Positions 2,748 through 39,369 of a stretch of 48,807 nt of DNA are shown piece by piece (positions within the stretch are counted from its first letter, which is position 1; each line of letters begins with the position of its first letter). Location: NCBI GenBank assembly GCA_012512505.1, contig JAAZEB010000322.1, positions 1-48,807 on the forward strand, given 5' to 3'. The notes under the pieces were generated by a model that saw nothing but the letters and a program-made list of their open reading frames with translations, was not told where the DNA came from and did no database searches. The position numbers and the translations under genes were made by a program. This DNA is from Armatimonadota bacterium (GTDB lineage: Bacteria; Armatimonadota; JAAZEB01).

Positions 2748-2836
2748 CAGGAGATGGCCGGAGTGCCCGAGCAATCGGGCTTCACACTGTAGGAAGCCGC
2801 ATCGCTGCGGCGCTCCGCTGCCCTCCCAGGAGATGG
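2748..2836 (-). repeat. dispersed structured repeat, copy A
   Basis: Read on the minus strand this is one unit of an intergenic repeat also found in tandem at 39176-39356 and as a variant at 26119-26214. It contains two short perfect hairpins: GCCGCAGCGATGCGGC with a GCGA loop, and GCCCGATTGCTCGGGC. The unit is bounded by CAGGAGATGG at 2748-2757 and 2827-2836; the same phrase marks the unit junction in the tandem array, so I read it as a unit boundary rather than a target-site duplication. The rest of the 2615-3126 gap holds the second repeat block at 2891-2947 and the promoter at 3035-3064. Confidence 0.8.
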
Positions 2837-22956: not shown

Positions 22957-23454
22957 TCAGCCGCGCAGCGGATGGTCCTTCTTGATCTTCTCCTGAATCT
23001 GGATGATCGCCGAGATCAGCGCCTCCGGGCGCGGGGGGCAGCCGGGCAGATAGACATCCACCGGCACGATCCGATCCACCCCCTGCACGATCGCGTAGTT
23101 GTTGAAGACGTTGCCCGTGGAAGCGCAGGAGCCCATCGAGATCACCCACTTTGGGTCGGCCATCTGGTCATAGATCCGCCGAACAGCGGGGGCCATCTTG
23201 CGGCTCACCCGTCCGGAGACGATCATCAGGTCGGCCTGGCGGGGCGAGGCCCGAAAGACCTCGGCGCCGAAGCGCGACACGTCGGCGCGGGCGCTCACGG
23301 TGGCCATCATCTCAATGGCGCAGCAGGCCAAGCCGAAGGTGAGGGGCCACAGCGACGACTTGCGCGCCCAATTCACCGTGCTCTCCGCCAGGCCCACCAT
23401 CCGCTCCACCGTCGTCAGGAAGACGGTATCCTTGAGCTCCTCCTCTACTCCCAC
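22957..23454 (-). CDS. nuoB: NADH-quinone oxidoreductase subunit B (cluster N2)
   Basis: A 165-residue subunit that carries the terminal 4Fe-4S cluster N2. All ligands are present: the tandem cysteines C44-C45 in [11 protein letters not shown]110 in SMGSCAS, and C139 in [10 protein letters not shown]. There is no suitable ATG before the conserved region, so I place the start at a GTG at 23454 that overlaps the end of nuoA by 10 bp (GTG GGA GTA GAG). An ATG further in would remove the conserved N-terminal helix. The start is the least certain part of this call. Confidence 0.93.
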
Positions 23455-23804
23455 TCCAGTGCTCCTTTCCTCAGGGCATATAGGTAGCCCAGCAGGAGGA
23501 TCCCGACGAACACCGCCGCCTCCACCAGACCCGTCAGCTTGAGCTGCTGCGCCTGCAGCACCGCCCAGGGCCACAACAGCACCGCCTCCACGTCGAAGAG
23601 GATGAACAGGATCGCCACCACGTAGAACTTCACGTCGAAGCGCAGGCGCGCGCTGCCCACCGGGAGCGAGCCGCACTCGTAGGGCGCCGTCTTCGTCGCC
23701 GTGGCCGTCTTCCGCCCGGCCAGCGACGACAGGAAGATCATCGTCACCCCGAAGCCGATCGCCAGCACCAGCATCAGCAGAATCGGGAAGTACTCCTTCA
23801 GCAC
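23445..23804 (-). CDS. nuoA: NADH-quinone oxidoreductase subunit A
   Basis: A 119-residue three-helix membrane subunit. The signature [20 protein letters not shown] with the redox-sensitive loop cysteine, then [18 protein letters not shown], is diagnostic. It is the first gene of the nuo operon. I see no strong promoter in the 142 bp upstream, so it may be co-transcribed with the tandem winged-helix gene that ends at 23947. Confidence 0.95.
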
Positions 23805-23946
23805 CTCTTGCGCCTTTCTTCACAAACAAAAGGGCCACGGCAGCCCCTGACCTGCTTCGGCCCGGACCCCGCGACCCCCTCCCGAGACGGGGTTGGGCTG
23901 CGGCCGGCCACTCCCCATTTCGGGCTTTAAGCAACTTATTCCTTTA

Positions 23947-25791
23947 TTATTCTTTGATATACTTCCGCTTTTGTCTACGGATCCCCTGCTCCACCTTCTT
24001 CTCGTCGTAGCCCCAGTAGCCGGGCCGCAGGTAGTTGAAGCACGCGTAGGCCGACAAAATGGAGGCGATCAGGTAGGCGTGGGTGCGGCGCACGACGTTG
24101 ACCTCTGTGAACAACGTCACGAAGTGCAGCCCCTTCTTGTCGTAGGCGCCCAGGATCTTCTGGATCAGCTCGAAGGTGGAGGTCTGGGTGTTCTCCGGGT
24201 CCTCGCGCATCGCTTCCAGGACGGCAAGGCGCTCGTCGCTGACGGCGACCAGTGGGTCCACGTCGCCCGGCTTGTAGGAGACGGTGTAGTCGGTCGTCAC
24301 ACCTTTGCCGCGGGGCTGAAGCTGGAACGAGCCGCCGCACAGCGGCAGGTCGAGCCGGTCAAAGAACGGCCCGAGCTCCACCATCAGGTTCAGGTTGTTG
24401 TTTAGCCAGGCGGTGAAGCTCTTCCCCGCGTGCAAGAGGGTAATCTCGACCACCTCGGGCTGGGTGGGGAAAAACGCGCGCAGGTCACCGTAGATGGGGA
24501 GTGCCCCGGCCAGCCGCAGCTCATAGCGGATGGCGGGGGTCACCTTGGGTGGCGCTTCCTCCGGCACGCTCCCCTCGGGGATCGGCTGGCCGGCGATCAT
24601 CACCCGGGGGTCTTTCACCCATTCCAGCAGGTCACCCTCGAAGCCTTCCTCGGCCAGCTCCACGTCGAGCGGCTCGCCATCCTCGTTGACGAAGTAGGGC
24701 AAATAGGGCAGATCCAGCAGTTCGGGCACCTTGTTGAGCAGGCGCGGCACCGTGCCGGCGAGCCGCCACCGCTCGCCGCCAACCCAGGCGAAGCGCTCGT
24801 CGGCACCCATAGCACCCCACACGCTCCCGAACGCCGCGTTGTAGTCGCGCTCGCCCGGCGACAGCTCGAAGATCGTCTCGATCACCTCGCTGATGCGGTG
24901 CGAGCGGCGGTCGGCCAACAGGCCGGCAATCTCGGCAACCTCGCTGGCGGTCACCTCGAACACGCGCGGCGTAGCTCCCTCTTCCGTCGTTTCCGGGGCT
25001 TCCCGCTCGGCGAGCTGCTCCGCGAACGTCTCCAGCGTCTGCCCGAACTCGCCCACCATCTCCGCGGCGCACCAGTGCCCCGTCGAAAGGAGCAGCGCGT
25101 CCTCGTGGTCGAGCAGTTGGGCGAAGAACTCGCCGGGGCGGAAGGCGCGGCGGGCCGCGCACCAAGCCAGGAACTGGAGCACCTTCCCAGGCACCGGTTC
25201 CCCAGCCTGCCGCAGAACCTTGACTGCCGAGTCGGCCAGTGCCTGGCGGTCCCACGGCAACCCGCCGAGGGCCTCGCGGAAGCGCGTCAGCACCTCCTCG
25301 TCCAGGAAGAAGTTGCGGAAGATGATCTCTTCCTCGTCGTGGTCGTCAACATCCAGCAGCCAGGCGGTGAGGCCCCAGCGGTCGCCGGCGGCGAAGTACT
25401 TGCCACGGCCACGGACCACCTGCTGCACCGAGGGAAGCAGCACATCCACCGGCCGGCCGACTCCCTCAGCGAGCAGGCGGGCGATCTGCTCGGCGGTCAT
25501 CGGCCGCCCGATCTGCTGCAGCACCTGCTCCACGCTGGCCTCAATCGGCCGGCGAGGATCCACTTCCGGGGCCGCCATCAGCCAGCGCCGGTCAATCGCC
25601 TGGTAGTTGTCGCTCGATTCCAGAACAGCGCGCAGCAACCGGGAGGTGACGGTGCCGTCTTGTTGGACGGCGGCGAGGATCTCGGAGACCTTGAGGGGTT
25701 CATCGGCCTGCAGCAGGCAGTCGGTGATGCGATCCAACAGATAAGTTCTGGCGGAGCCCTCAAGTTTCGGCTCCACGGCGACGTCGCTCAA
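23947..25791 (-). CDS. unrecognised protein with four apparent tandem winged-helix repeats
   Basis: A 614-residue acidic, soluble protein that I cannot assign to a named family. From the TTG start, four segments each of about 60 residues share the pattern of a helix-turn-helix ending in a W-containing wing: about 16-73 (EPLKVSEILAA ... RRWLMA), 83-144 (RPMTAEQIARLL ... DRWGLTAW), 184-243 (EPVPGKVLQFLAW ... GHWCAAE) and 291-346 (HRISEVIETIF ... ERWRLAG). This resembles HARE-HTH-type winged helices such as the RNA polymerase delta subunit. The C-terminal 250 residues are a separate unknown domain ending in a basic tail (IRRQKRKYIKE). The start is TTG at 25791 with GGAGG 7 nt upstream; a GTG at 25818 lacks a ribosome site. 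It lies immediately upstream of nuoA on the same strand. Confidence 0.7.
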   Translation of the reverse strand: MSDVAVEPKLEGSARTYLLDRITDCLLQADEPLKVSEILAAVQQDGTVTSRLLRAVLESSDNYQAIDRRWLMAAPEVDPRRPIEASVEQVLQQIGRPMTAEQIARLLAEGVGRPVDVLLPSVQQVVRGRGKYFAAGDRWGLTAWLLDVDDHDEEEIIFRNFFLDEEVLTRFREALGGLPWDRQALADSAVKVLRQAGEPVPGKVLQFLAWCAARRAFRPGEFFAQLLDHEDALLLSTGHWCAAEMVGEFGQTLETFAEQLAEREAPETTEEGATPRVFEVTASEVAEIAGLLADRRSHRISEVIETIFELSPGERDYNAAFGSVWGAMGADERFAWVGGERWRLAGTVPRLLNKVPELLDLPYLPYFVNEDGEPLDVELAEEGFEGDLLEWVKDPRVMIAGQPIPEGSVPEEAPPKVTPAIRYELRLAGALPIYGDLRAFFPTQPEVVEITLLHAGKSFTAWLNNNLNLMVELGPFFDRLDLPLCGGSFQLQPRGKGVTTDYTVSYKPGDVDPLVAVSDERLAVLEAMREDPENTQTSTFELIQKILGAYDKKGLHFVTLFTEVNVVRRTHAYLIASILSAYACFNYLRPGYWGYDEKKVEQGIRRQKRKYIKE

Positions 25792-26010
25792 GTTAGCACC
25801 TCCAAGTATAGCCGTCACCCGGCACGCCGGGAGGGTGCAAGCGCCTTACAAGGCACGGGCCCTCGCGCCGGCCTGGGTATCGCCAGCAGCCCTCCGATGG
25901 CGAGCCTCCAGCCCCCGCTCCGGTTGGCCCTCTCCCGCCGTCTGCCACCACGCCAGTGGCCGGGCGCCGGCCGTGGGTTCCCTTCGACGCCCGGATGGAG
26001 TACCCTCGCT

Positions 26011-26040
26011 GCTGCCGGAAGGGATCGAGCTTCCGGCAGC
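26011..26040. repeat. 11-bp perfect hairpin in the leader region
   Basis: GCTGCCGGAAG (26011-26021) and CTTCCGGCAGC (26030-26040), 8-nt loop. No T-run follows on either strand, so it does not look like a simple terminator. Confidence 0.65.
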
Positions 26041-26118
26041 GTCCTCGGAGGCACCCCCACTCCGTAAGCCCCCCGCAAACCACTGGGCCACGGCAGAGAT
26101 GGCATCCTGGGGGCTAAT

Positions 26119-26214
26119 AGCCTATCCGAAAAGCTCCGATACGTACCGGAGTGCCCGAGCAATCGGGCTTTGTAACCGTATCGCTGCGGCACACCGCTAC
26201 TCTCCGGATAGGCT
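26119..26214 (-). repeat. dispersed structured repeat, variant copy D with nested stems
   Basis: Bounded by perfect 10-bp inverted repeats AGCCTATCCG (26119-26128) and CGGATAGGCT (26205-26214). Inside on the minus strand lie a CGATACG/CGTATCG pairing and the hairpin GCCCGATTGCTCGGGC shared with the copies at 2.8 and 39.2 kb, plus GCCGCAGCGATACGGT, a degenerate form of the other shared hairpin. The nested pairing gives a compact branched fold of 96 nt. Confidence 0.75.
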
Positions 26215-26258
26215 CTAAAGGCGAGGTTCGGCCGTGCCACGGGCTCAGCAACAGGCCC

Positions 26259-26287
26259 ATCTTACCACAATCGGGAGCCGTAGTCAA
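26259..26287 (-). promoter_or_regulatory. sigma-70-like promoter reading toward the winged-helix gene
   Basis: On the minus strand TTGACT (26287-26282), exactly 17 bp, TAAGAT (26264-26259). Start predicted near 26252. It lies about 84 bp beyond the stop of the thioredoxin-like gene. Confidence 0.65.
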
Positions 26288-26371: not shown

Positions 26372-27388
26372 CTACTTCATCTGCAGCGCCGCGGCGATCA
26401 CGTCGGTGACGTGGCAGGGCATCACGCCGCCGCCCCCTTTGCCTTTCGCCGGTGCCGGTGGTTGGCTGTCCCGCTTGTTCTCCGGCAGCACCCACGTCGG
26501 CTTGTTGGATTGGGCGGTCACCACCAACAGCGACGGGAACGCGGTCACCCCATAGCGGCCGGCCAGCTTCTTCTCCGCCGCGCTCCGGCTGGGCACAATC
26601 TTCACCGCCGTGGCGCGCGCCAGCACCTCCCCGGCGCGACAGGCCGAGAAGACCTCCGCTTCCAGGCTGCGGCACCGCGCCGAGGTCGGCTCCGAGAAGT
26701 AGAGCATGACCCCCTTCTTGGTGGCGGCAAGCTCCTTCATCGCCGTGTCGTGGCCCTTGCTGCCGTTCAGCCACTTCACCCGACCACCGGCCGCCCCCGG
26801 AGCACCCGGCGACTTTGGCTTCGTCGTCTCCGCCACCTCAGTGTTCCCGGTGATCATCAGGGCGGTGCGCCGCGCTTCCGCCGGCAGCGGCTCCGGCGTG
26901 AACACCATCGTCGCCTGATACTCGCGGGAAAACTGCGAGAACAGCCCGAAGCGCTGCTCCCCCTTGGCCAGCGGCGCGCTCTTGTTGCCTTGGACCACGA
27001 TGCACACCGAGCCGCCGGCCATCCGCCGTACCTTGGACGCGGCGATGACTCCGGAGAACGGGGTCTGCTTCTGTTCCTGGCGGCGCGCCTCCCAGGCGAT
27101 GCTGCCGGTTCGGGTGCCGGCCGCCATGACGTCGTAGCTAGTGCGGTAGTCGCCGATCAAATAGCTGACGCTGCCCAGCTTGATCGGCCGGGTGGCCTTG
27201 AGCACCTTGCTGACCGCAACCGGGGTGCTGATGGCCACCAGGCGCACCTTCGGCAGCGTCGCCACCACCGTCTTCGAGCGGCTGGCTTTGGGGGCCGCCG
27301 CGGCGGCGCTGACAAAACCCACCAGCAGCATCAGTACCAGCGGCAGGGGGAACCGCCACCGGTTGCACTCCATCGGCAAAGCGTTCAT
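26372..27388 (-). CDS. exported protein with single-cysteine thioredoxin-like domain
   Basis: A 338-residue protein with a signal peptide (hydrophobic LPLVLMLLVGFVSAAAAAP, about 15-33). The middle (40-190) is unrecognised. Residues about 213-300 form a thioredoxin fold: GVMLYFSEPTSARCRSLEAE in place of the usual FxxxWCxxC region, then the partner segment KLAGRYGVTAFPSLLVV with the conserved cis-proline P285. The CxxC motif is broken; only the second cysteine position (C239) is kept, with C250 further on. A disulfide reductase role is therefore doubtful; a single-Cys isomerase, binding or structural role is possible. The C-terminal part is Lys/Gly/Pro rich. It is divergent from the ModABC-like operon and has its own promoter. 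Confidence 0.65.
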   Translation of the reverse strand: MNALPMECNRWRFPLPLVLMLLVGFVSAAAAAPKASRSKTVVATLPKVRLVAISTPVAVSKVLKATRPIKLGSVSYLIGDYRTSYDVMAAGTRTGSIAWEARRQEQKQTPFSGVIAASKVRRMAGGSVCIVVQGNKSAPLAKGEQRFGLFSQFSREYQATMVFTPEPLPAEARRTALMITGNTEVAETTKPKSPGAPGAAGGRVKWLNGSKGHDTAMKELAATKKGVMLYFSEPTSARCRSLEAEVFSACRAGEVLARATAVKIVPSRSAAEKKLAGRYGVTAFPSLLVVTAQSNKPTWVLPENKRDSQPPAPAKGKGGGGVMPCHVTDVIAAALQMK

Positions 27389-39072: not shown

Positions 39073-39140
39073 GGTCGGAGCGCCGGCGTCCCGCCGGCCG
39101 CCGTAGGAGACCCTCATGCCTGGCAGGCGGGCACCCAGAA
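39073..39140 (+). repeat. composite intergenic repeat, first block
   Basis: Matches the reverse complement of 2891-2947 (shared GGTCGGAGCGCCGG, GCCGTAGGAG and GGCGGGCACCCA). It is followed directly by the 80-bp hairpin units, in the same order as at 2.8 kb. Confidence 0.75.
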
Positions 39141-39175
39141 GCAGCGAGGTGCCGCGGCGACGCGGCCGCCCGGCA

Positions 39176-39356
39176 GAGGCCCGATGGCTCGGGCACTCCG
39201 GCTAGTTGCCTAGGAGAGCAGCGGAGCGCCACAGCGATGTGGCTTCCTACAGTGTGACGCCCGATGGCTCGGGCACTCCGGCCAGTTGCCTGGGAGAGTA
39301 GCGGAGCGCCGCAGCGATGCGGCTTCCTAACAGCGTGAAGCCCGATGGCTCGGGCG
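39176..39356 (+). repeat. tandem array of the 80-bp structured repeat (copies B and C)
   Basis: A partial unit (39176-39200), a full 80-bp unit (39201-39280) and a nearly full unit (39281-39356). Each holds two hairpins. The first is GCCACAGCGATGTGGC in unit B and GCCGCAGCGATGCGGC in unit C: a paired G-C to A-T change that keeps the stem. The second is GCCCGATGGCTCGGGC in both; it differs from the 2.8-kb copy only in its loop. Confidence 0.85.
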
Positions 39357-39369
39357 GTACAAGGCACCG

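What the first reader, a model, noticed from the sequence alone, without database searches (positions are those of the whole stretch)
23947..26287. Unrecognised tandem winged-helix protein behind a 460-nt structured leader, directly upstream of the nuo operon
The 614-residue protein appears to carry four winged-helix repeats, each ending in a conserved tryptophan wing, plus an unknown C-terminal domain with a basic tail. Its promoter (TTGACT, 17 bp, TAAGAT) sits about 460 nt upstream of a TTG start with a good ribosome site. That leader contains a nested branched fold and a perfect 11-bp hairpin. The gene is on the same strand as nuoA and no other nuo promoter is visible, so it may set nuo expression. 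The repeats are my reading from residue patterns; the winged-helix call resembles HARE-HTH domains but is not proven.
Basis: partly seen in the sequence, partly recalled or inferred. Interest (0 to 1): 0.75.

Follow-up and report, generated by a model that had tools for sequence, protein, structure and literature searches.

The report
Armatimonadota five-winged-helix core protein
A gene next to the respiratory nuo operon encodes an unnamed protein with five winged-helix domains like the RNA polymerase delta subunit plus a B3-like domain, kept in one copy by nearly every member of this bacterial phylum; its place beside nuo is a local accident, and the striking fold in its leader is a dispersed genomic repeat.

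Summary
In detail: a 614-aa TTG-start protein (23947-25791, minus) lies behind a TTGACT-17-TAAGAT promoter, directly upstream of nuoA. A confident AlphaFold model (mean pLDDT 91) shows the four proposed winged helices and a fifth, missed one at the C-terminus, the best-conserved part. WH2, WH4 and WH5 each match the RNA polymerase delta profile in one member or another, below curated cut-offs. The 'unknown' domain is B3-like by fold (1yel, VRN1) but not by sequence. The gene is single-copy in 193 of 205 Armatimonadota genomes at least 90% complete, and has no Pfam or NCBIfam family.

The nuo and leader interpretations fail. Its usual neighbours are rimO (34/53 loci) and gltX (23/53); nuo adjacency is confined to its own family (3 genomes) and one looser case, and a sister genus has its own promoter before nuoA. 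The branched leader fold is one copy of a MITE-like repeat with about 90 matches in this genome and none in 20 relatives; leader length varies (467/300/153 nt).

Best reading: a phylum-wide delta-like accessory factor of transcription, working on RNA polymerase and/or DNA (about 0.4). Function is inferred; fold is predicted; distribution and context are shown.

The parts
26259..26287 (-). Promoter TTGACT-17-TAAGAT with TG before the -10
   Evidence: Scan; same promoter conserved in G001 and G002
26119..26214 (-). Copy of a dispersed MITE-like repeat: terminal inverted repeats AGCCTATCCGGA/TTCGGATAGGCT round a GGAGTGCC...GGCACTCC-type branched unit (the 'nested branched fold')
   Evidence: about 90 matches elsewhere in own genome, none in 20 relatives; TIRs and consensus structure; fold z -6.6
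26011..26040 (-). Perfect 11-bp hairpin GCTGCCGGAAG-8-CTTCCGGCAGC
   Evidence: sequence, fold z -3.2 for the region; no relative found in own genome
25797..25803 (-). Ribosome site GGAGGTG before TTG start
   Evidence: conserved in G001 and G002
23947..25791 (-). 614-aa tandem winged-helix protein, single-copy phylum-wide family
25576..25770 (-). WH1 (residues 8-72)
   Evidence: model; hhalign to WH2 91%
25348..25545 (-). WH2 (residues 83-148), closest to RNAP delta
   Evidence: family profile versus PDB 2krc E 0.0014; hhalign 95%
25066..25239 (-). WH3 (residues 185-242)
   Evidence: model; hhalign to delta 84%, to WH4 93%
24760..24948 (-). WH4 (residues 282-344)
   Evidence: model; orthologue L062 matches TIGR04567 in the corresponding segment, E 1.5e-7
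24253..24546 (-). B3-like beta domain (residues 416-513)
   Evidence: C-terminal model pLDDT 94.6; top two PDB fold hits are plant B3 domains; no sequence support
23992..24237 (-). WH5 (residues 519-600), best-conserved domain, RRTxRRxxASxLSxY helix
   Evidence: TIGR04567 hits in orthologues
23950..23991 (-). Basic C-terminal tail (KRKY)
   Evidence: mean net charge +3.7 over 45 sequences
23445..23804 (-). nuoA, first gene of the downstream nuo operon (neighbour, not part of the function proposed)

Best explanation
The gene encodes an undescribed core protein of Armatimonadota: five tandem winged helices of the RNA polymerase delta (HARE) kind, with a B3-like domain before the fifth, acidic linkers and a basic tail. 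Shown by computation: a confident fold model, sequence similarity of several winged helices to delta, single-copy presence in almost the whole phylum, and a common position beside rimO and gltX. Inferred: it is a constitutive accessory factor of transcription. [quoted passage not shown] It is not a dedicated nuo regulator.
For: Family profile versus PDB: the best hits are RNAP delta chains (6zfb, 2krc E 0.0014). TIGR04567 (RNAP delta) matches 23 of 45 members at E <= 0.1, best 5e-8, at WH2, WH4 or WH5 in different members. hhalign WH2-delta 95%, WH3-delta 84%, WH5-delta 77%. Foldseek lists 2krc prob 0.98 and 9a6y prob 0.99. No other delta in own genome. Present in 193/205 phylum genomes, one copy each. 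Neighbours are often informational genes, rimO 34/53 and gltX 23/53. WH5 is the most conserved part with a basic helix.
Against: The window protein does not reach the delta or HARE-HTH cut-off (13.0 against 42 bits; 18.2 against 25.9), nor does any orthologue scanned singly reach the delta one. Delta has one winged helix and a disordered acidic tail; this has five and a basic tail. Winged helices are a common fold, and the full-length fold search also lists RNA-binding SelB and other tandem winged helices, with no hit at E <= 0.001. No direct evidence of polymerase or DNA binding.
Confidence: 0.4

Rival explanations
1. A nucleoid or chromatin-like DNA-binding protein: the winged helices and the B3-like domain bind DNA in series, possibly sensing base modification, without contacting polymerase.
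For: The two best PDB fold matches of the C-terminal domain are plant B3 DNA-binding domains, and FUS3 B3 appears in the full-length search. B3 domains bind DNA in restriction enzymes (PMC4267653). HARE-HTH domains are proposed to read modified DNA (PMC10853773, PMC11037411). Basic conserved WH5 helix and tail.
Against: WH1-WH4 and the linkers are neutral to acidic on average, unlike typical DNA-coating proteins; no B3 match by sequence; no PADLOC hit.
Confidence: 0.3
2. A translation or RNA-linked factor, binding RNA with tandem winged helices as SelB does, in line with the rimO-gltX neighbourhood.
For: rimO (ribosomal protein S12 modification) upstream in 34/53 loci and gltX downstream in 23/53; SelB winged-helix fragments among the full-length fold hits.
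Against: Sequence similarity is to delta, not SelB; bacterial neighbours of core genes are often functionally mixed; no GTPase part.
Confidence: 0.18
3. One reading: a regulator of nuo with a long regulatory RNA leader.
For: Directly upstream of nuoA on the same strand in all three genomes of its family; no nuo promoter of comparable quality visible in the window between the two genes.
Against: Adjacency absent elsewhere in the phylum except one looser case; G002 has TTGACG-18-TAAAAT before nuoA; leader not conserved and its main fold is a repeat copy.
Confidence: 0.05

Closest known systems
RNA polymerase delta subunit (RpoE; TIGR04567; 2krc, 6zfb)
   Same: Winged helices WH2, WH4 and WH5 resemble the delta N-terminal domain in sequence profile; wing Trp; acidic stretches
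   Different: Five winged helices instead of one, folded C-terminal module, basic tail instead of a disordered acidic tail, 600 aa instead of about 170; below the curated cut-off
HARE-HTH domain (PF05066)
   Same: Winged helix with hairpin wing; weak profile match at WH2
   Different: Below gathering score in the window protein (18.2 against 25.9 bits); the model shows three helices per unit, without an obvious inserted fourth
B3 DNA-binding domain (plant B3 proteins At1g16640, VRN1, FUS3; restriction enzyme B3 domains)
   Same: Fold of residues 416-513 by Foldseek, prob 1.00 and 0.99
   Different: No detectable sequence match to B3 in Pfam or PDB; Foldseek E-values 0.011 and 0.055; DNA contacts untested
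SelB C-terminal winged helices (1lva, 2uwm)
   Same: Tandem winged helices in one chain
   Different: No sequence similarity found; no GTPase domain; weak global fold scores

Membership tests
RNA polymerase delta subunit | Score above curated TIGR04567 cut-off (42 bits) | tested here: not met
   Window 13.0 bits; highest score seen when members were scanned singly 31.5 bits, L062; best E among all 45 members 5e-8
RNA polymerase delta subunit | N-terminal winged helix with delta-type sequence | tested here: met
   Profile versus 2krc/6zfb E 0.0014; hhalign WH2-delta 95%; similarity is weak and at domain level only
RNA polymerase delta subunit | Disordered, strongly acidic C-terminal region | tested here: not met
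   C-terminal half folds with pLDDT 94.6 and ends in a basic tail
[quoted passage not shown]
   Property described in PMC7749165
HARE-HTH (PF05066) | Score above Pfam gathering threshold | tested here: not met
   18.2 against 25.9 bits; 4 of 45 members match at E <= 0.1
HARE-HTH (PF05066) | Winged helix with an extra helix inserted in the HTH (PMC11037411) | tested here: inconclusive
   DSSP of the model shows three helices and a hairpin per unit; delta coordinates not superposed
B3 domain | B3 pseudobarrel fold | tested here: met
   Top two PDB hits are 1yel and 4i1k, TM by target 0.64 and 0.57; E-values modest
B3 domain | B3 sequence signature | tested here: not met
   No B3 hit with the domain profile or members
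B3 domain | Sequence-specific DNA binding | not testable with these tools
   needs a binding assay
nuo operon regulator | Conserved linkage to nuo | tested here: not met
   3 genomes of one family plus one looser case among about 53 loci
Cis-regulatory RNA leader | Structure conserved upstream of orthologues | tested here: not met
   Leader 467/300/153 nt without shared sequence; no Rfam match; main fold is a dispersed repeat

The most novel reading that the evidence does not exclude
A previously unrecognised, phylum-specific RNA polymerase-associated subunit or general transcription factor of Armatimonadota, built from five delta-like winged helices and a B3-like domain, taking the place of delta.
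Probability: 0.2. Interest if true: 0.85.

Novelty: new variant of a known kind. Interest (0 to 1): 0.55.

Why it matters
A single-copy gene kept by about 94% of the well-sampled genomes of a phylum, without a family in Pfam or NCBIfam, is likely a basic cell component that has been overlooked. If it acts on RNA polymerase, it would show that delta-type accessory factors exist in a quite different, multi-domain form outside Bacillota. A B3-like fold in a bacterial protein with no recognisable nuclease would also bear on where plant B3 domains come from.

Tried and rejected
nuo regulation: rejected on neighbourhood data and a separate nuo promoter in G002. Regulatory leader or riboswitch: rejected on lack of conservation, no Rfam match and the repeat nature of the fold. 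Sub-threshold Rfam matches (mir-1822, P10, Clostridiales-2) were taken as chance. Pfam 'Dimerisation', DUF4777 and WH_Rok hits were below cut-off and read as generic winged-helix similarity. Defence role: no PADLOC hit, and the phylum-wide single-copy distribution argues against it. Y1 transposase as mover of the repeat: none found. Search for relatives outside the phylum: the one genome-contig scan used two peptide patterns and returned only Armatimonadota or unnamed MAGs; no match in plasmids or phages. Alignments A1 and A2 were too diverse for that scan. Viral fold library gave nothing usable. No paper found on such a protein in Armatimonadota; the original HARE-HTH paper (Aravind and Iyer 2012) is not held.

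Full report
What was claimed.

The gene. The ORF is real: TTG at 25791 to the stop at 23947 on the minus strand. Its start context (GGAGGTG, TTGAGCG) is shared by the two sister genera. Differences to those genera fall mostly at third codon positions (119/82/275 and 127/95/260), so the protein is under selection. The promoter TTGACT-17-TAAGAT is found by the scan and is conserved in both sister genera as TTGACT-17-TAACAT.

Distribution. Of 61 genomes searched, its own and 60 relatives, 58 have a match. Taking all genomes of the phylum at least 90% complete in the held set, 193 of 205 have the C-terminal module, one match each; six of the twelve without it belong to one family, f29. Named records fetched with related queries are Armatimonadetes, Chthonomonas or Chthonomonadaceae/Chthonomonadales, apart from two unnamed MAGs. 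No match was found in plasmid or phage records. Presence outside the phylum was not properly tested.

Fold. With 45 aligned homologues, AlphaFold gives mean pLDDT 91. The elements are WH1 8-72, WH2 83-148, WH3 185-242, WH4 282-344, a beta domain 416-513 and a fifth winged helix 519-600. pTM is 0.69, so relative domain placement is less sure than the domains. Wing tryptophans are conserved to different degrees (W70 40/45, W144 43/45, W240 29/45, W336 25/45, W593 42/45). WH5 is the most conserved domain.

Relation to delta. The window protein, and every orthologue scanned singly, stays below the curated delta cut-off, but several searches point the same way. The family profile's best PDB hits are RNA polymerase delta chains (E 0.0014). 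NCBIfam delta TIGR04567 matches 23 of 45 members (best 5e-8), and members scanned singly show it at WH2 (L037, L073), WH4 (L062 1.5e-7, L069, L084) or WH5 (L034, L035, L036, L076). Profile-profile comparison links WH2 (95%), WH3 (84%) and WH5 (77%) to delta, and WH1-WH2 and WH3-WH4 to each other. Delta chains also appear in the structure search with probability 0.98-0.99, though with weak E-values. The own genome has no other delta-like gene.

The beta domain. Folded with WH5 alone (pLDDT 94.6, pTM 0.88), the C-terminal half gives as its two best PDB matches the plant B3 domains At1g16640 (prob 1.00) and VRN1 (prob 0.99); FUS3 B3 appears in the full-length search. E-values are modest (0.011, 0.055), and the domain profile finds no B3 by sequence. 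B3-like is a fold-level statement.

Neighbourhood. In 53 loci, rimO lies upstream on the same strand within 1.5 kb in 34 and gltX downstream in 23, both in 20; ftsK is sometimes further upstream. The names rimO, gltX and ftsK are my reading of the neighbour sequences, not a family search. In the window's genome rimO and gltX are on other contigs. nuo genes are adjacent only in the window's family (three genomes), with one looser case in G005. In G002 a TTGACG-18-TAAAAT promoter stands between this gene and nuoA. The nuo link is therefore most simply a recent and local one.

The leader. Its length from the -10 to TTG is 467, 300 and 153 nt in the three genera. The branched fold (26119-26214, z -6.6) belongs to a repeat with about 90 further matches in the genome, often in tandem with a period near 80 bp, flanked by AGCCTATCCGGA/TTCGGATAGGCT inverted repeats, and found in none of 20 relatives searched. 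The 11-bp hairpin (26011-26040) is not repeated and remains unexplained.

Function. The most likely reading is a constitutive transcription accessory factor that works like delta in part: delta-like winged helices for docking, the conserved C-terminal module for nucleic acid. [quoted passage not shown] this protein lacks such a tail, though its linkers are acidic. Rivals are a DNA-coating or modification-reading protein and a translation-linked RNA binder. No binding was tested. It is not filed as a delta subunit, because two defining features were tested and not met.

Noticed in passing
window 26119-26214 (-), 2757-2828 (-), 39140-39357 (+); L098, L110, L112 and others: MITE-like repeat of this genome: terminal inverted repeats around one to several units of about 80 bp, each forming a closing helix with two hairpins (GGAGTGCC...GGCACTCC). 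About 90 matches in own genome, none in 20 relatives, no Rfam match, and no Y1 transposase found.
   Followed up: partly
L032 (G002) between the homologue and nuoA: A strong promoter TTGACG-18-TAAAAT before nuoA, sharing the GATTGTGRTAANAT form of the promoters before the winged-helix gene, which suggests an extended -10 consensus in this family.
   Followed up: partly
L122, L123, L124, L125 (G055, G033, G030, G043): A few Armatimonadota genomes carry other, Pfam-recognised HARE-HTH proteins of different architecture (the L123 protein has two HARE matches).
   Followed up: no
window 26372-27388 (-): Upstream neighbour encodes a protein that looks thioredoxin-like with a signal peptide (my reading); a homologue keeps this place in G001 (42% identity).
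   Followed up: no
window 23830-23848 (-): Terminator-like hairpin with T-rich tail just before nuoA; not more than shuffles give (1 found, 1.6 expected).
   Followed up: no
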